Source: Candidatus Borrarchaeota archaeon (GTDB taxonomy: Archaea > Asgardarchaeota > Sifarchaeia > Borrarchaeales > Borrarchaeaceae). Taken from it: a DNA stretch of 7,461 nt. The DNA lies in the NCBI GenBank assembly GCA_016840645.1, contig JAEORY010000186.1, forward strand, positions 1-7,461, read 5' to 3'. Of the stretch, positions 513 through 7,461 are shown in pieces. The notes under the pieces are model-generated. The model was not told where the DNA came from, did not search any database, and was given only the letters and a program-made list of their open reading frames with translations. A program made the position numbers and the translations under genes. The stretch's first letter is position 1. Every line of letters begins with the position of its first letter.

Positions 513-3500
513 TTACAGAAAAAGCGAAAGAAGTCGAAAAGCAATTCCACCTAGAATAAGTGCTAACGCGATATCAACAACAACTATTATTACAGTTCTT
601 TTCCAGCCAAATTCTCGTAACAATGCTCCTATGGTGGCTATGCAGGGTATGTAAATCATTGTGACAATAGCAAAAACAATCATTTGCACTGGAGTGAGAA
701 TCAGATCAAAATTAACTGTACCTGCTATGTCTGCCAATAAAATCAATGTTAATTCCCTTCTTAAGATTCCAAATACTAGTGGGATCGAAGTGATATCTGG
801 CAGCCCTAGCCATCCCGTAACGACAGGTGCCATCACTATACCAATTAAATTGAGAAGCCCAAATATTCGAAATACTTCTATTAGTAAACTTCCTGTAATA
901 ATTAAAGGGAATGCAATATATACAAAATCCTTGCTTCTATGCCAAGTCTTAGTAAGCACTACTTTTATCGAGGGCATCTTATAAGGCGGCATCTCCATAA
1001 TTAGACCCATAGGTTCACCAGGGACTGTTTTAAATGCAATTCGTCCTAAAATAAAAATCAAAATCAAATTAAAAACATATAACCCCATTGCCCACCCAAA
1101 ACCAAGATACCGACCCACTAATCCGATTATTACTACAGTACGAGCAGCGCATGGAATTAAGACTACCACAAACCCTGCAAGTAGCCGTTCTCTATCTGTT
1201 TCCATTATACGACAGCCAACGCAGGCAGGGACACTGCAACCATATCCAAGAATTAATGGAATGAATGCCTTTCCATGGAGACCAATCTTATGCATGATAT
1301 TGTCCATTAAAAATGCAGCTCGAGGTAGATATCCTGTGTCCTCTAAAAACGATAGAATAATGTAAAATGGAACGATAAAAGGTAACGCAATGGTTATTCC
1401 TGCAATTATTCCTTCTACTAAACCACGAGAAATCAAACTAACTGCTACCGGAGGCAAACCAGCATTTAATAGTATTATTTCAAGTTGTGGCAGCATTAAA
1501 TCATAAAATAAACTTTCTAAAAGACTGATTAAGAAATCTCCAACACCAAAAACTATGGCAAACATTAGAGCCATTATTCCAATTAAAATAGGATATCCGA
1601 GGATTCGATGAGAGGTAAGACTGTCTAGTTTTTCCTCAAGAGAAAGTTGCGGTGGAGAAACGAACTCTTGCGATTCGTAAGCGATACGGTTTGCAATATT
1701 ATATCTTTCAGCAGCTATTGCTACTGGAGCGATATGTCCATGCAAATCTTCTATCTTAACAATAAATTCACGAGCTAATTCGAGTACAGATGATCCATTT
1801 TCTTCTTCTTGTACTTTCTTAACAATAATTTCATCTTTTTCTAGTAGTTTAATACTTAACCATCGTGTAGCATATAGTTTAGAAAGTTTTGGAAGATTAT
1901 TCTCGATTTTTTCTTTTAGTAGTCCAATATATTTCTCAATTTCAGTTCCATATTCTGCAGGCTTAATATCTACTTTTGTTTTCCCTTCTGCAACAGAAAT
2001 TACTTTTGAAATTAATTCACTTATCCCTATACCCGAAATAGCTGTAGTTGGAACGACCGGGATGTCGTTTAATAATTTCGATAACTTTTCACAGTCTAAA
2101 CAAATACCTTTCTTTGCGCAAAAATCCATTTGATTACACGCAATAATAACTGGGACTTCAAGCTCTAGTAATTGAACAGTAAAATACAAATTCCTTTCTA
2201 AATTAGATGCATCTACGACATTGATAATAATATCTGGATGTTCTAAGGCTATATATTCGCGAGATACAACTTCTTCAAGGCTATATGCACTCAAACTGTA
2301 AATTCCGGGCAAATCAATTACTTTAATAGTGTGCCCTTCAAAATAAAGCGTTCCTTCCGCTCGTTCTACCGTTTTTCCAGGCCAATTACCCGTAACTTGA
2401 TTTAGACCAGTTAATTGGTTAAATACGACGCTATTGTGAACAAAAATACCATTGGCTAACATAAAATTTTCATTTTCTTCAACTGTCAAATCATAAACAT
2501 AACCATCATCGGAATCTACTTCGTTGATTTCTTGTATCGTATCCCAAACCACATCACTAAAAGCTATTTTTTCTATCACTTTTAATGCTGGATTGTCACC
2601 AATTGTGAATTTTTTATATAGGTTCGTAAGTCTTTTGAGGAAATTTTTTGTAACGTATCGTCTTTCATTTTCTAGAGCACTAATATAAGTTCCTTTGACG
2701 GATTTCCAGCCCAGTTTTTTTACAACTTCTAATTGTGTTAAGCCAGTTGCTGCTCGTGCTTGTTTTAATATGTTTCCAAGACCCTTGATTCGATCTAGCC
2801 ATTGTGCACGTTCTTTGCTTGGATTTGGAATAAATCTTATTTCAAAATATAGAGTTTCATCTATTGTCTTAACACGTAATCTTGAATGTTTGTTGATTAA
2901 AGCCAGGAGGATAACTAATCCCTTTTGAAGTTCTGCACTCTTCGTAATAGCATGAACAGCAGTAACCTGTTTCCATCCATCACCCTCAAGATAGCCCCTT
3001 AGTAAAGAGTTTATTAGTTTTTCATTAAATTCATAAATAAATGATGGTATCCTTTTTTCTCCAGAATTACATCCAAATTCTTGTAAGATTGGCTTTAAAA
3101 CCTTGGAAATACCAATATCAAAAGCAACTTTCCCAGTACTTTTATGATTGTTGCAAGGAATACTATTTTTCTCTAAGTGATTGATAATAAAATCTCTGAT
3201 TTCTTCATCACCAGTTGTAATCCTAGGAATTTGACATAACTGAGAGATACTTCCTTCAGCAAGATATAAACCAAAAAATCTCGCCCAATTCTCATCAATT
3301 TCTAAAACTCTTTTTATCCTATTTCCATGAACTTTTACATAATCATTATAGATTTGATATTGTTTATTTTCTGAGTCTATAGTTTGTAAGAGATACTCTC
3401 CAAGATCTATGAATGGCTTAGATCCTTCTGTTCTTAATTTTTCTGTTAAAGGGAGCTGATCTCCAATTGATAATTCATCACCATCAACTACGACAATTCT

Positions 3501-3872
3501 ACTGTTTCTTAATACAATGAAATTATGATCTTTTGTTGTTTTCAATTCGCGACCAGATGCTGTGATTAAATGAAGAAGTTTCCTGTTTTCTTTATGACGT
3601 AACAAGTGTGATACTTTCTTTTTTTCAGACTTCAATGTTTTCAAATTTAATGACATAACAAACAGATTATGTGGTTTTGCAACATCTGTATCCTTGATTC
3701 TTTCAGTAGGTAAGACATCAAAAATATTATTCACTAAATTCTTTAGTTTTTGTGTTTGCCAACGTGAATCTTTATTTACAAAAATATACTCATTACCACT
3801 AAGAGATTTACCGACATTCGCATTCCCAGCTAAGGCGATGCGTAAGACTTTCTTCTCTTCCAAGAAAATCAC
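513..3872 (-). CDS. feoB: Ferrous iron transporter FeoB precursor, interrupted by an intein in the P-loop
   Basis: FeoB brings Fe2+ across the cytoplasmic membrane and needs its N-terminal GTP-binding domain. The 1119-residue precursor contains host residues 1-22 and 481-1119, giving about 661 residues after splicing, normal for FeoB. The G motifs are G1 GNANVGK|S (residues 16-22 joined to Ser481), switch I around Thr501, G3 DLPG (520-523), G4 NQMD (580-583) and G5 TAIS (610-613). A helical regulatory region follows to about 750. The membrane part has the gate motif GYGCSVPAC (876-884), PCAAR (907-911), GILRRELT (1035-1042) and a C-terminal IPCIATIGALLREFGW block (1075-1090), among roughly eight to ten hydrophobic segments. 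It is the second gene of the feo operon. The first in-frame start, GTG at 3872, overlaps the feoA stop (GTGA). However, a GGTGAT ribosome site (3868-3873) covers that GTG, so TTG at 3863 (residue 4) may be the real start. No frameshift is seen. Confidence 0.95.
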   Translation of the reverse strand: MIFLEEKKVLRIALAGNANVGKSLSGNEYIFVNKDSRWQTQKLKNLVNNIFDVLPTERIKDTDVAKPHNLFVMSLNLKTLKSEKKKVSHLLRHKENRKLLHLITASGRELKTTKDHNFIVLRNSRIVVVDGDELSIGDQLPLTEKLRTEGSKPFIDLGEYLLQTIDSENKQYQIYNDYVKVHGNRIKRVLEIDENWARFFGLYLAEGSISQLCQIPRITTGDEEIRDFIINHLEKNSIPCNNHKSTGKVAFDIGISKVLKPILQEFGCNSGEKRIPSFIYEFNEKLINSLLRGYLEGDGWKQVTAVHAITKSAELQKGLVILLALINKHSRLRVKTIDETLYFEIRFIPNPSKERAQWLDRIKGLGNILKQARAATGLTQLEVVKKLGWKSVKGTYISALENERRYVTKNFLKRLTNLYKKFTIGDNPALKVIEKIAFSDVVWDTIQEINEVDSDDGYVYDLTVEENENFMLANGIFVHNSVVFNQLTGLNQVTGNWPGKTVERAEGTLYFEGHTIKVIDLPGIYSLSAYSLEEVVSREYIALEHPDIIINVVDASNLERNLYFTVQLLELEVPVIIACNQMDFCAKKGICLDCEKLSKLLNDIPVVPTTAISGIGISELISKVISVAEGKTKVDIKPAEYGTEIEKYIGLLKEKIENNLPKLSKLYATRWLSIKLLEKDEIIVKKVQEEENGSSVLELAREFIVKIEDLHGHIAPVAIAAERYNIANRIAYESQEFVSPPQLSLEEKLDSLTSHRILGYPILIGIMALMFAIVFGVGDFLISLLESLFYDLMLPQLEIILLNAGLPPVAVSLISRGLVEGIIAGITIALPFIVPFYIILSFLEDTGYLPRAAFLMDNIMHKIGLHGKAFIPLILGYGCSVPACVGCRIMETDRERLLAGFVVVLIPCAARTVVIIGLVGRYLGFGWAMGLYVFNLILIFILGRIAFKTVPGEPMGLIMEMPPYKMPSIKVVLTKTWHRSKDFVYIAFPLIITGSLLIEVFRIFGLLNLIGIVMAPVVTGWLGLPDITSIPLVFGILRRELTLILLADIAGTVNFDLILTPVQMIVFAIVTMIYIPCIATIGALLREFGWKRTVIIVVVDIALALILGGIAFRLLSLFL
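2622..2777 (-). other. Cro/cI-like helix-turn-helix embedded in the intein
   Basis: Precursor residues about 366-417 read as an XRE-type DNA-binding unit. LKQARAATGLTQLEVVKKLG supplies helices 1-2 with the usual G-x-T-Q turn, YISALENERRY supplies the recognition helix with its typical S-x-x-E-N pattern, and FLKRLTNLYKKF supplies helix 4. It lies between the endonuclease and the block F splicing motif. The likely role, by analogy with extra DNA-binding modules in other homing endonucleases, is to add grip or specificity for the homing site. A regulatory role cannot be excluded. No separate start or ribosome site suggests it is made alone. Confidence 0.75.
2823..3290 (-). other. Homing endonuclease domain (two LAGLIDADG motifs) of the FeoB intein
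   Basis: Precursor residues about 195-350 hold two LAGLIDADG helices, with Glu206 and Asp298 as the likely metal-binding acidic residues, about 90 residues apart as in single-chain enzymes. Known enzymes of this family cut an intein-free copy of the host gene so that repair copies the intein into it. The target here would be the P-loop codons of feoB. Both acidic positions are kept, although the first helix has Glu where Asp is commonest, so activity is plausible but not certain. Confidence 0.8.
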
Positions 3873-3873
3873 C
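3868..3873 (-). promoter_or_regulatory. Shine-Dalgarno site GGTGAT that argues for a TTG start of feoB
   Basis: On the minus strand GGTGAT overlaps the feoA stop and the first GTG of the feoB frame. It sits four bases before an in-frame TTG (3861-3863). feoA uses the same core, GGTGA, four bases before its ATG. A GTG inside the pairing region is a poor start, so translation from TTG, giving a protein starting MEEKKVLRIALAG, is favoured. The alternative is GTG with coupling to feoA translation. Confidence 0.5.
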
Positions 3874-4564
3874 GGCTTTTTTGCATTGCCAAACGGGTTC
3901 GTAGACTTAATTTTCCTATAGGTTTAACAAAAATTCTTTTAGCTATCTTGTTGCCAATCGCAAGACATGTGTTGCGGATACAGATTTCAATTGGTCCATG
4001 AAACGGCGCTTTGTTATTGATTGTTATTTCTGCCCCGGGAGTCAACCCTAGGTCAGCAAGTCTTTGTACTTGCCCTCTACCTCCAAACATAAACTGAATA
4101 ATACCCTTTTCTCCAGTATGGAGATATGCAAGAGGTAGTATGTCTTCTATCCTTCCTTCAATTTCCTCAAGATTACGATAAAAATAACTTATATTTGAAT
4201 TATTAAGTCCATGTCTATCCCAATCAATGAACTCATCATTCATTTTTCCATGTTGGTGTCTTTTACCACCTCTACCTCTCCTAATCATATTTCGAAGGCC
4301 TTTTCTCGGATGTATAAACCGATCATGTAAATATTTTTCTCTATGGATTCTTAAGACCTCTTTTCCTTTCTCTGTTACCTTAAAAATACCTTTATCTTCA
4401 GAAATCAAATCATTAGACTGAGCAATCGCTATAACATTTTCAATATCAGAAACAGGAACTCCTAACTCATCAGCAATTTTTTGAAGAGGAAATGATTCTC
4501 CACCATTGACATTTATTAGTTCAAGAAAACATGGGATGAGTTCTTCCAATTTCTGGATAGACAT
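3869..4564 (-). CDS. feoA: Winged-helix/FeoA fusion protein (DtxR-like DNA-binding domain plus FeoA SH3-like domain)
   Basis: The 231-residue protein has two recognisable ends. Residues 1-85 look like a winged helix of the DtxR type: a recognition region FPLQKIADELGVPVSDIENV (25-44), the wing DKGIFKVTEKGKEVL (57-71), and then HREKYLHDRFIH (74-85), which recalls the helix after the DtxR wing. Residues 142-215 are a FeoA domain with LADLGLTPGAEI (169-180), HGPIEICIR (189-197) and LAIGNKIAKRIFV (201-213). FeoA domains are small SH3-like folds that assist FeoB. The linker 86-130 is rich in Arg, His and Gly (MIRRGRGGKRHQHGK) and replaces the normal DtxR metal and dimer domain. The ATG at 4564 has AGGTGA four bases upstream (4569-4574), which settles the start. 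The gene is first in the operon and overlaps feoB by four bases. The layout fits an iron-uptake accessory protein that may also regulate its own operon; that second role is inferred. Confidence 0.9.
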   Translation of the reverse strand: MSIQKLEELIPCFLELINVNGGESFPLQKIADELGVPVSDIENVIAIAQSNDLISEDKGIFKVTEKGKEVLRIHREKYLHDRFIHPRKGLRNMIRRGRGGKRHQHGKMNDEFIDWDRHGLNNSNISYFYRNLEEIEGRIEDILPLAYLHTGEKGIIQFMFGGRGQVQRLADLGLTPGAEITINNKAPFHGPIEICIRNTCLAIGNKIAKRIFVKPIGKLSLRTRLAMQKSR

Positions 4565-4746: not shown

Positions 4747-6054
4747 TCACAAGGCATCGACAGCATTTACTCCAGCAATATATCCAGTGGTAAGTGCGAC
4801 GCCAAGACCTGATTTTTCACTAATATAGTCATAACCAGCGAGAATAGATCCTGCTCCAAAAAGATTATCTGCTAGTACTTTTCCATCTAGATCTAGAGGT
4901 CTTAAGGTTTCATCTGTTATAATTCCCGTAAATCCTATATTATGTTTTGCAGATTCAAGACGTTTTCCTGCAAAATGATTGGCTTTATTACTACTACGTA
5001 CTGGTAAATCGAAAATTGGTTCATAGAACTTTGTCCCATCGAAATATAATCCTTCTGCGATAAAGCTGCCTGTCGCTAGAACAAAAACATCTGCCGTAAA
5101 TGTCCGCCTGTAAATATCTGCTACTGTTTCCAAAGTTTTACATTCATTATTTTTGACATGTGCACTTAAAACCTGAATTCCTCTGTGAATCTCGACACCA
5201 ACGTCATTAACTGCATTCTCTAAAATCTGTTGAAGTCTCTGTCCAGCTACTGATGGGGGGAGTGATAAACATTCAAACACTTGAACACCGAGTTCTTCTT
5301 CAAGACGTTGATGGTTTTGAATCCAGTTTTTATATCCTAATATTGCTGGAAAAGCAACTGTATACGCATCTGTTTCATTTACAGACTTTTGCAGTTGTTT
5401 CAGAAACCCTGAAAATAATTCTTCATTATCTAATGCTTCAGCAATCTCTATTGATGTAATTTCTTTATTTTTTCCCAAACTGGGTATCATTATGTCTTGC
5501 GAGACGATTTCTTTGATTATAGTCTGTTTAAAAAAGGAATTCACAACATACTGTAAAGATTTTGAAAAGAATTTAGCATTGAATTCTGAATAACCCGGCA
5601 CTCCAACAGTCATAAGTTTTGAATCTTTGAATTCGAGAAGGTTACCATGTAGCATTGATATAGGGACAATGCAACTTGGTCTGAATGTGCCGAAATAGTT
5701 AGATAATACAACATTTTGAGAAGTTTTACCGGCATAAGTCATGTTTGTGATTTCTAGAAAATCTTGAATCGAAATTTTCAAAATCTCTAAGGTTTTTTTA
5801 GCGTTTCCATTACCAATTTTTGCGTACGGATGACTTGGTGACGTACGAACAAGTTTACTAATGTTTTCTTCGGGATTTATGACCAATTCGTTTTGTAAAT
5901 ACCCGAGTAGATCAATTACTCCAGTACTCATGTTTGTTGTTCCTAAACCCCTACTAAGAACTGCAACTTTCTTTCCTGTTTCTGCAATTTTTCTTGCTGC
6001 CGTTAAACCTGCCATACCTGCGCCAATAACAATTGCATCGTATCGAATATCCAT
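4747..6054 (-). CDS. glpB: Anaerobic sn-glycerol-3-phosphate dehydrogenase subunit B
   Basis: The 435-residue protein is close in length to E. coli GlpB (about 419) and matches it along its length. The N-terminal dinucleotide-binding motif is VIGAGMAGLTAARKI (GxGxxG at 11-16). Further landmarks are the STGVIDLL block (43-50), LPPSVAGQRLQ (265-275), VLATGSF (325-331), DETLRP (381-386) and AGSILAGYD (401-409) near the C-terminus, the last typical of FAD-dependent flavoproteins. GlpA and GlpB together oxidise sn-glycerol 3-phosphate to dihydroxyacetone phosphate in anaerobic or respiratory metabolism; in bacteria GlpC anchors the pair to the membrane and passes electrons to quinone. The ATG at 6054 overlaps the glpA stop by one base (TAATG), so the two are translated in a coupled way. 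A GGAG at 6066-6069 is the only ribosome-site candidate and is rather far. No signal peptide or membrane segment is present. Confidence 0.93.
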   Translation of the reverse strand: MDIRYDAIVIGAGMAGLTAARKIAETGKKVAVLSRGLGTTNMSTGVIDLLGYLQNELVINPEENISKLVRTSPSHPYAKIGNGNAKKTLEILKISIQDFLEITNMTYAGKTSQNVVLSNYFGTFRPSCIVPISMLHGNLLEFKDSKLMTVGVPGYSEFNAKFFSKSLQYVVNSFFKQTIIKEIVSQDIMIPSLGKNKEITSIEIAEALDNEELFSGFLKQLQKSVNETDAYTVAFPAILGYKNWIQNHQRLEEELGVQVFECLSLPPSVAGQRLQQILENAVNDVGVEIHRGIQVLSAHVKNNECKTLETVADIYRRTFTADVFVLATGSFIAEGLYFDGTKFYEPIFDLPVRSSNKANHFAGKRLESAKHNIGFTGIITDETLRPLDLDGKVLADNLFGAGSILAGYDYISEKSGLGVALTTGYIAGVNAVDAL

Positions 6055-7461
6055 TACTCTCGACTCTCCAGCAGTTTTTTGTATAATTGGTCATAATTTC
6101 CAACGCAACTAAACACTGATTGGTTTAATAGTTCTTGTCGAAGCTGGTTCATCCAAAGAACAAATTTAGTACCTTTCCACCTTTCCTCAATAAAATCAAT
6201 AATTGCTTTTTGTATATCGGCTATTTCGTTATCTTTTGAATACTCAAACAATTGATGCGCAAGTTTGAGCGTACATAAACCACCTTGGCAAATCCCAAAT
6301 CCAGCTTGCGTTCTTTTACAAATATCCTCAAGAGTATAAGCCCACATTTCATCGATAATGTATTTCACTTCTGCATTCGATACATATTCACACGAACATG
6401 CCGTTAATCTTGTGACAGGATTTTCTTCCATATTCGCAAAAATTGTCTTAGCTGCGGCTTCCCATCTCCCAATTGTACGCTCTGCAAGGAGCCAAGGTAT
6501 TTTTAATTTTTTAGCAATTTCCACAAATTTAAGATCATGTTCTTCTGCACCAGGAAGTTTAGTTTTATGTGTTACACAATCTGCTCGTATTCCAAGTTTT
6601 TCTGCAACAAGGTCTGCGGTCTTTTCTGCCATAAGTCTATAAGTTGTAAGCTTACCCCCCGTAATTGTAATTAGACCAAAAACACCATCTCTTGTTTCAT
6701 GATCTAGTACTTTGAATGTCCTACTAATTTCCCTTCCTTCTTCGCCAGGCTCAGCTCCAAATAATGGTCTATTACCTGCATACGCTCGTACCATTCGGGC
6801 TTCCTTGACAAATGGAGAAAGAATGGCTCCCTCGCGAATCATTTCATCAACTTCATCCGTTGTAACTGGATATTCATCAGGATCATCCATAGAAACTGAG
6901 GTTGTTCCGATAATAGCCGTACTGATATGAGGAACTATAATATCACCATTCGCTGGAAAACGAAGCCTGTTAACTACTCGTGTGAAAAGTCTTCGATCAA
7001 TAACAACCATGACGCCTTTGGATGGTGTTATTGGAATATGAATATCGGCTAATTTAGCAATTTTTCCAGCCCAAACACCAGTCGCGTTGATCACAAAATC
7101 TGCGTATAAATCATAGATATTTCCTTTTCTATGATCTTTAACTCTGACGCCTGTAATTGTCATATCATCATTATGGAGCGCTATTACCTCGGAATATGTT
7201 CGAATAGAAGCACCTAACTGGGCCGCCTGGAGTGCTGTTTCAACAATAAGTCGAAATGGGTAAACACTTCCATCATTAACGTATAATGCATTCTCAACAT
7301 CTTCATTAATAAATGGCTCCATTTGAAGTGCTTCTTTTGGCGATAATTCTTTTACTTCAACATTGCATTCTCGACAACCTTGAACGAATTTATCTTTAAA
7401 TGCAGGATCGTCAATTCCAGAAATTCCTACAAAAAGTCCTCCGCACAAATGGACGGCGTTA
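6054..7461 (-). CDS. glpA: Anaerobic sn-glycerol-3-phosphate dehydrogenase subunit A, N-terminus outside window
   Basis: The frame is open to the window edge; the first TTG (7448) is internal, not a start. By comparison with E. coli GlpA (about 540 residues), roughly 80 N-terminal residues with the Rossmann GxGxxG are missing here only because the window ends. Counting from 7448, the fragment shows the flavoprotein blocks FVINATGVWAGKIA (118-131), PSKGVMVVIDRR (142-153), YAGNRPLFGA (223-232) and the family signature TITGGKLTTYRLMAE (261-275). A C-terminal BFD-like [2Fe-2S] domain follows with Cys351, Cys353 (CSCEYVS) and Cys387, Cys392 (CQGGLC). That Fe-S domain distinguishes GlpA from aerobic GlpD. 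The ERWKG segment near 422-426 is also shared with E. coli GlpA. The subunit carries out FAD-dependent oxidation of glycerol 3-phosphate and hands electrons on. It is the upstream gene of the glp operon, with glpB starting on its stop codon. Confidence 0.94.
   Translation of the reverse strand, partial: NAVHLCGGLFVGISGIDDPAFKDKFVQGCRECNVEVKELSPKEALQMEPFINEDVENALYVNDGSVYPFRLIVETALQAAQLGASIRTYSEVIALHNDDMTITGVRVKDHRKGNIYDLYADFVINATGVWAGKIAKLADIHIPITPSKGVMVVIDRRLFTRVVNRLRFPANGDIIVPHISTAIIGTTSVSMDDPDEYPVTTDEVDEMIREGAILSPFVKEARMVRAYAGNRPLFGAEPGEEGREISRTFKVLDHETRDGVFGLITITGGKLTTYRLMAEKTADLVAEKLGIRADCVTHKTKLPGAEEHDLKFVEIAKKLKIPWLLAERTIGRWEAAAKTIFANMEENPVTRLTACSCEYVSNAEVKYIIDEMWAYTLEDICKRTQAGFGICQGGLCTLKLAHQLFEYSKDNEIADIQKAIIDFIEERWKGTKFVLWMNQLRQELLNQSVFSCVGNYDQLYKKLLESRE

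What the first reader, a model, noticed from the sequence alone, without database searches (positions are those of the whole stretch)
2433..3806. Intein splits the P-loop of FeoB, so iron transport depends on protein splicing
Seen: all splicing blocks plus a LAGLIDADG endonuclease lie between Lys22 and Ser481, and removal restores GNANVGKS. Known: the GK^S/T point of P-loops is a favoured intein site in RecA, RadA and helicases, because it is highly conserved. I do not recall FeoB among the classical intein hosts, but cannot check. Inference: no active FeoB forms until splicing is complete, giving a possible post-translational checkpoint on iron uptake. The first intein residue is also Ser, so the unspliced N-part still reads GNANVGKS but is cut off from the rest of the G domain.
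Basis: partly seen in the sequence, partly recalled or inferred. Interest (0 to 1): 0.75.

Follow-up and report, generated by a model that had tools for sequence, protein, structure and literature searches.

The report
Mobile intein inside archaeal iron transporter
An uncultured archaeon's gene for the iron importer FeoB is interrupted, exactly in its nucleotide-binding loop, by a self-splicing mobile protein element that a close relative lacks; it is a real intein in a host protein for which we found no earlier report, while control of iron uptake by splicing remains only a guess.

Summary
One 1119-codon frame (513-3872, minus strand) encodes FeoB with a 458-residue intein (2433-3806) between Lys22 and Ser481 of GNANVGK^S. 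It has the splicing motifs, two LAGLIDADG motifs with both acids, and a helix-turn-helix at threshold. An assembly error is very unlikely: 16 other complete database proteins carry an intein at this junction, and two relatives carry the same glp-feo operon, 94.8% and 93.5% identical in DNA, with a precise empty site. The family shows the homing cycle: empty sites, full inteins (5 of 17), one of these with a lost endonuclease acid, and mini-inteins (12 of 17). FeoB and intein trees disagree, fitting horizontal movement. All 17 keep Ser1, TxDH, HN and Ser+1. Best reading: an ordinary homing intein that must splice before FeoB can bind GTP. An iron checkpoint is unsupported: 6 of 17 inteins have no cysteine, empty-site sisters exist, and the nearest relative has a second FeoB-like gene pair. 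FeoB is a new intein host as far as our text searches show; the chemistry, the P-loop target and the accessory domain are known from other inteins.

The parts
3807..3872 (-). FeoB N-extein, 22 residues, GTG start, ends GNANVGK (P-loop up to the Lys)
   Evidence: start overlaps the end of feoA by 4 bases
2433..3806 (-). intein, 458 residues, Ser1 ... His457-Asn458
   Evidence: Pfam PF14890, TIGR01443, TIGR01445; 17-member set
3441..3806 (-). N-terminal part of the splicing (HINT) domain, intein residues 1-122 (limit approximate, from the mini-intein alignment)
3525..3536 (-). block B TKDH, intein residues 91-94
   Evidence: present as TxDHNF in 17 of 17 inteins
3249..3278 (-). first LAGLIDADG motif FFGLYLAEGS, residues 177-186, acidic Glu184
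   Evidence: sequence; aligned with PI-PkoII
2973..3005 (-). second LAGLIDADG motif LLRGYLEGDGW, residues 268-278, acidic Asp276
   Evidence: within the Pfam PF14528 match
2616..2780 (-). XRE-type helix-turn-helix inside the intein, residues 343-397, probable DNA-recognition accessory domain
   Evidence: Pfam HTH_31 E=5.6e-6, at the cut-off; helices in the model, with low confidence at 369-383
2433..2576 (-). C-terminal part of the splicing domain, residues about 411-458, ends FVHN
513..2432 (-). FeoB C-extein: Ser+1, rest of the G domain, cytosolic helices, membrane permease; 639 residues and stop
   Evidence: TIGR00437, PF02421, PF17910, PF07670, PF07664
3869..4564 (-). feoA-type gene, 231 aa, FeoA domain at the C-terminus, weak winged-helix matches (below cut-off) at the N-terminus; directly upstream of feoB
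   Evidence: PF04023 E=1.6e-18; same order in L041-L044

Best explanation
The insert is a class-1-type, Ser1 homing intein. Shown by sequence: a HINT splicing domain interrupted by a LAGLIDADG endonuclease with a helix-turn-helix, inserted in frame at GNANVGK^S of FeoB in an archaeon (most likely an Asgard archaeon, judged from its nearest named and grouped relatives), with intein-free orthologues in the same operon of relatives. Inferred: the 1119-residue precursor splices itself through Ser1, the block B Thr/His, Asn458 and Ser481, giving a 661-residue FeoB with an intact P-loop and a free 458-residue intein; the intein cuts intein-free feoB alleles at the P-loop codons, and repair copies the intein in. 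The site is used because the P-loop DNA is conserved and an insertion there cannot be tolerated without splicing, not for the benefit of iron regulation. After spread, the endonuclease decays and is deleted, leaving mini-inteins.
For: Domain hits. 17 of 17 complete inteins have Ser1, TxDHNF, HN and a following Ser; they were picked by a pattern that asks for GK before S/T and (H/S)N before S/T, but the only long protein among the 120 listed that failed the pattern was P0023, which lacks its N-terminal part. 5 of 17 are full length (458 aa each), 12 of 17 are 175-218 aa; P0015 and P0022 keep a remnant of the stretch before the first LAGLIDADG motif; P0005 has Tyr for the second acidic residue. 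Precise empty site without gap or duplication in L043 and L044, 94.8% and 93.5% identical to the window over about 5.6 kb. Rare and patchy: strong profile matches in 2 of 227 genomes of the Asgard phylum (E<=1e-30) and 3 of 256 of the class of L003 (E<=1e-20), while 143 of 227 Asgard genomes have a FeoB match at 1e-50. FeoB data reject a grouping of P0001, P0003, P0004 and P0006 (AU p=0.00015) although their inteins group together (support 90/93); the intein data reject the host grouping only marginally (p=0.043). Mini-intein dN/dS 0.19-0.26 between two Bathyarchaeota genomes (L003, L004), so the splicing domain is under purifying selection there. The structure model best matches the inteins PI-PkoII, TliVMA, PhoVMA and PI-PfuI.
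Against: No splicing or cutting was measured. The intein tree has few well-supported forks (4 of 14 inner branches starred), and the groups for the AU tests were named after the trees were seen, so horizontal transfer is likely, not proven. Window-specific base changes near the site are only mildly enriched (9 of 299 within 150 bases, 21 of 2317 elsewhere in feoAB, p=0.005, the best of six widths tried), so a co-conversion tract is only suggested. No donor DNA was found, and no viral carrier. Gain and clean loss cannot be told apart for the window itself.
Confidence: 0.92

Rival explanations
1. The intein has become a regulatory switch: splicing is slow or blocked until a signal (iron, redox state, temperature) permits it, so FeoB is held inactive as a precursor.
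For: The cut lies inside the P-loop, so the precursor should not bind GTP normally; conditional splicing is described for RadA (PMC5790916, start of abstract and passages), DnaB (PMC6195587, start of abstract) and SufB (PMC5874633 passage). Endonuclease-free inteins persist on several branches of the FeoB tree, with purifying selection in the one pair tested.
Against: 6 of 17 inteins have no cysteine and none is common to all; both nucleophiles are Ser, which removes the usual thiol-based redox or metal switch, though not a RadA-like switch by intein-extein contact. Sister operons lack the intein. Persistence of mini-inteins is also expected because clean loss is hard.
Confidence: 0.06
2. Assembly chimaera or frame artefact joining an intein to feoB.
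For: The window is a short contig; no reads were available.
Against: Same junction in 16 further complete proteins and in genome contigs L001, L003, L004 and L013 (the two lists overlap, P0024 lies on a contig of the length of that of L003); no stop or frameshift across 1119 codons.
Confidence: 0.01
3. A dead insertion: the intein no longer splices and feoB here is a broken gene.
For: Splicing cannot be shown from sequence; a relative has a possible second FeoB system.
Against: Catalytic positions intact, 97.8% amino-acid identity of the C-extein to an empty-site orthologue, and extein dN/dS of about 0.07 between window and L043.
Confidence: 0.02

Closest known systems
Inteins of archaeal RNA polymerase largest subunit / A'' (NCBIfam NF011491; P0122-P0139)
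   Same: Closest family: NF011491 aligns over the whole intein, residues 1-458, at 201 bits (a whole-protein model with cut-off 783, not met); HINT plus LAGLIDADG; 22-29% identity for P0122-P0139
   Different: Different host protein and site; the one of them that was scanned, P0125, shows no helix-turn-helix match
Inteins in HerA-type ATPases (P0140, P0142)
   Same: Same layout: HINT, LAGLIDADG_3, then HTH_3 above its cut-off inside the intein
   Different: Different host; 24-26% identity
VMA-b inteins of archaeal V-type ATP synthase (TliVMA 7qss, 7qsu; PhoVMA 7qst)
   Same: P-loop site in a membrane ion-transport enzyme; HINT, LAGLIDADG and accessory domain; active and degenerate endonucleases at one site (PMC8966425, passages); second to fourth best fold matches
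   Different: Host is an ATP synthase subunit, not an iron transporter; 13-16% identity in the fold alignment
PI-PkoII (2cw7), which I take to be the PI-TkoII of PMC8966425 (equation from recall)
   Same: Best sequence and best fold match in the PDB (E=1.9e-23; Foldseek E=1.8e-24); PI-TkoII has an accessory domain with helix-turn-helix (PMC8966425 passage)
   Different: Different host; 17% identity in the fold alignment
RadA P-loop mini-inteins of Pyrococcus and Thermococcus (4e2t)
   Same: [quoted passage not shown] HINT fold match
   Different: No endonuclease; conditional splicing shown there, untested here
Mycobacterial SufB intein
   Same: Host protein is in iron metabolism (Fe-S assembly; PMC8891592, start of abstract)
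   Different: Not a P-loop GTPase or transporter (recalled); bacterial

Membership tests
Intein (class 1 type, Ser1) | N-terminal nucleophile Cys/Ser | tested here: met
   Ser1 in the window and in 17 of 17
Intein (class 1 type, Ser1) | Block B Thr-x-x-His | tested here: met
   TKDH at 91-94; TxDHNF in 17 of 17
Intein (class 1 type, Ser1) | C-terminal His-Asn followed by Ser/Thr/Cys | tested here: met
   HN then Ser in 17 of 17; S/T after the site and N before it were part of the pattern that picked the rows, so this row is not independent of the selection
Intein (class 1 type, Ser1) | HINT profile and fold | tested here: met
   PF14890 E=2.3e-28; fold matches to inteins
Intein (class 1 type, Ser1) | Self-catalysed splicing | not testable with these tools
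   needs expression
LAGLIDADG homing endonuclease | Two LAGLIDADG motifs with an acidic residue each | tested here: met
   LAEG and EGDG in the window; second acid lost in P0005
LAGLIDADG homing endonuclease | Cuts intein-free allele and promotes homing | not testable with these tools
   empty alleles exist; cutting not measured
FeoB | FeoB equivalog model above cut-off | tested here: met
   TIGR00437 513 bits, cut-off 315.65
FeoB | Linked feoA | tested here: met
   PF04023 gene directly upstream
Thiol-switched (redox- or metal-controlled) intein | Conserved cysteine that could act as the switch | tested here: not met
   6 of 17 inteins have no Cys, so none is common to all; other metal ligands were not tested
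Conditionally spliced intein of any kind | Splicing rate that answers to a signal | not testable with these tools
   needs expression; a RadA-like intein-extein switch is not excluded

The most novel reading that the evidence does not exclude
FeoB precursor splicing is a sensed step: intein-bearing archaea hold a pool of membrane-inserted but GTP-blind FeoB and release it by splicing when iron or temperature calls for it, which would explain why endonuclease-free mini-inteins persist in several lineages.
Probability: 0.07. Interest if true: 0.75.

Novelty: new member of a known kind. Interest (0 to 1): 0.42.

Why it matters
It adds an iron transporter GTPase to the intein hosts, most of which are replication, recombination and repair proteins (62% and 67% of bacterial and archaeal inteins, PMC5874633 passage). 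One insertion site shows every stage of the homing cycle (empty, active-looking, decayed, mini) in Asgard archaea and Bathyarchaeia, including an empty and a filled allele in operons 94.8% identical in DNA. That makes intein gain and loss in uncultured archaea directly testable, and gives a P-loop GTPase in which precursor and product should differ in GTP binding, a convenient splicing assay.

Tried and rejected
Looked for the window's own genome: none is held. Looked for the intein in viral contigs as a carrier: 25 pattern matches, none confirmed. First scan of genome contigs with the single intein: 35 pattern matches, none confirmed; the scan with an 8-row alignment gave 32 pattern matches and 4 loci. 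Looked for RNA families in the window: none at gathering score. Tested for co-conversion around the site: weak enrichment only; six widths gave p=0.045, 0.03, 0.15, 0.023, 0.0048 and 0.061, uncorrected. dN/dS of the full-length intein against L001, and of L003 against L013, was saturated and gave no value. Considered and rejected: assembly chimaera; cysteine switch. In the phylum of G003, 4 of 398 genomes matched at 1e-20; two of the four (G618, G806) were judged by eye from their frames (a RadA-like frame with two inteins; a topoisomerase VI-like frame) not to be FeoB. Papers: 3 papers hold both intein and FeoB; two were opened for passages and are unrelated; the third was seen only in the listing and is about magnetosome engineering. 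Searches behind 'no earlier report found': 20 of 42 listed; no paper met all six terms; the library lacks most subscription journals, and intein databases were not searched.
Full report
What is there. The minus strand of 513-3872 is one open frame of 1119 codons with a GTG start that overlaps the end of a feoA-type gene by four bases. The frame is FeoB (TIGR00437, 513 bits against a cut-off of 315.65) interrupted by a 458-residue insert at 2433-3806. The insert starts SLSGNEY and ends NENFMLANGIFVHN, and lies between Lys22 and Ser481. Pfam finds the intein splicing domain (E=1.6e-27), LAGLIDADG_3 (3.6e-6) and an XRE-type helix-turn-helix (HTH_31, E=5.6e-6 for the intein alone, 27 bits as printed at a cut-off of 27; below the cut-off for the whole protein). 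NCBIfam finds both intein end models above cut-off. Solved FeoB G domains align with the same loop uninterrupted (3k53 GNPNVGKT, 2wjg GNPNVGKS, made with the intein-free relative P0007).

Is it more than chance or an artefact? A search of 5.8 billion proteins (clustered) with the whole protein gave 4687 hits among 7998 scored candidates, of which 120 were listed: 17 (the window's own included) carry a complete intein at this very junction, one (P0023, Njordarchaeum) is truncated inside the intein, and 102 have no insert, 101 of these with a GN(A/P)N(V/S)GK(S/T) loop by pattern; the one left over was not examined. Named organisms among the 18 are Promethearchaeota (P0003), Bathyarchaeia (P0019, P0024) and Njordarchaeum (P0023); most have no name. 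Genome contigs carry it too: L001 (Asgard group archaeon LC30), L003 and L004 (Bathyarchaeota B26-2 and B26-1), L013 (unnamed) and, in two pieces that end at contig ends, Njordarchaeum guaymaensis (L045 and L002). These overlap with the proteins in part.

Empty sites. Genomes G179 and G180, both in the phylum of the Asgard genome G001, have the same order glpA, glpB, feoA, feoB; FeoA is 97% and 95% identical, the FeoB C-extein 97.8% and 93.5%. Over about 5.6 kb the joined flanks of the window are 94.8% (L043) and 93.5% (L044) identical to them, with no gap or duplication at the junction. Synonymous divergence of feoB between window and L043 is about 0.13, so gain or clean loss is recent. Bases changed only in the window are mildly denser within 150 bases of the site (9 of 299 against 21 of 2317, p=0.005; the five other widths gave 0.023 to 0.15), which is what co-conversion during homing would leave, but the evidence is weak.

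Life cycle. Of the 17 complete inteins, 5 are 458 residues long, with endonuclease and helix-turn-helix region, and 12 are mini-inteins of 175-218 residues; two of these (P0015, P0022) keep a remnant of the stretch before the first LAGLIDADG motif. P0005 has Tyr in place of the second acidic LAGLIDADG residue and is probably inactive; the window, P0003, P0004, P0006 and L001 keep both. The intein is rare: strong profile matches in 2 of 227 genomes of the Asgard phylum and 3 of 256 of the class of L003, while 143 of 227 Asgard genomes have a FeoB match at 1e-50. In the phylum of G003, 4 of 398 genomes matched, two of them in FeoB. In a FeoB tree of 55 rows (17 intein-bearing, 38 of 102 intein-free) the trait needs at least five changes on the best tree, three if only well-supported branches are trusted. 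FeoB data reject a clade of P0001, P0003, P0004 and P0006 (AU p=0.00015), though their inteins group together at 90/93; the intein data reject the FeoB grouping only marginally (p=0.043). The groups were named after the trees had been seen. Horizontal movement is therefore likely but not proven.

How it works. Shown: intact catalytic positions in 17 of 17 (Ser1, TxDHNF, HN, Ser+1), with the reservation that the pattern that picked the rows asked for part of this; purifying selection on the one pair of mini-inteins that could be measured (dN/dS 0.19-0.26 between L003 and L004, against 0.08-0.10 for the extein). Inferred: splicing by the standard class 1 route; no GTP-competent FeoB before splicing, because the P-loop is separated from the rest of the G domain; homing by cutting the conserved P-loop DNA. 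The GTPase domain of FeoB is described as essential in regulating iron import (PMC3153494, start of abstract in a listing).

The checkpoint idea. Nothing found favours it beyond the site itself and the persistence of mini-inteins. 6 of 17 inteins have no cysteine and both nucleophiles are Ser. Where genomes could be searched, FeoB was found once in G001, G003 and G257, as one gene in pieces in G002, and twice in G004, the second hit in two pieces, one with a stop; this would fit dependence on the spliced product in the first three. Against it, the closest relative G179 has one full FeoB with an empty site and a second FeoB-like pair of 235 and 460 residues in neighbouring frames, while G177, G178 and G180 show one FeoB each. 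For the window's own genome the number of FeoB genes is unknown. Conditional splicing at a P-loop has precedent in RadA (PMC5790916, start of abstract and passages), so the idea remains testable.

What is known. P-loops as intein sites in DnaB, PcrA, UvrD, RecA and RadA, and the bias to replication and repair hosts, are in PMC5874633 (passages). A P-loop site in a membrane ATP synthase, active and degenerate endonucleases at one site, and helix-turn-helix accessory domains in TliVMA and PI-TkoII are in PMC8966425 (passages); VMA inteins and PI-PkoII are also the best fold matches (model mean pLDDT 78.9, pTM 0.64). The closest sequence family outside FeoB is the intein of archaeal RNA polymerase A'', and HerA-type inteins share the HINT, LAGLIDADG, helix-turn-helix layout. 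No paper on FeoB inteins was found in the searches in an open-licence library; one search listed 20 of 42. Some intein-bearing FeoBs are already in public databases under the plain name ferrous iron transport protein B (P0003, P0018, P0019, P0023). Verdict: a real, well-supported new host for a known kind of element.

Noticed in passing
3869-4564: The FeoA-type protein is long (231 aa): FeoA domain only at residues 144-215, with weak winged-helix matches below cut-off at the N-terminus; it may be a regulator as well as a FeoA.
   Followed up: no
1-390: C-terminal part of a TnpB-type RNA-guided endonuclease cut off by the window start, convergent with feoB; relatives at 87-88% identity on the same contigs as the operon in L042 and L044, at other positions.
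   Followed up: partly
513-2432, around FeoB residues 579-594: The G4-type motif (name recalled) reads NQMD rather than NKxD and four cysteines lie around it (CNQMDFCAKKGICLDC); P0003 and P0007 share three of the four and P0009 two.
   Followed up: no
L048 and L049 (G179:C4:1017190-1019216): A second FeoB-like system split into a 235-residue G-domain frame and a 460-residue membrane frame next to each other.
   Followed up: no
L046: A RadA-like frame (recognised by eye) with two inteins, the first with GGGY in place of the second acidic LAGLIDADG motif and an XRE-like stretch.
   Followed up: no
4747-7460: glpB and a glpA cut off at the window end (anaerobic glycerol-3-phosphate dehydrogenase) lie upstream of feoAB on the same strand and keep this order in L041-L044.
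   Followed up: partly
G179 and G180: Both genomes have several further, weaker matches to the FeoB intein profile in long frames (best 1.1e-14 and 1.7e-14), probably inteins in other host proteins; not examined.
   Followed up: no
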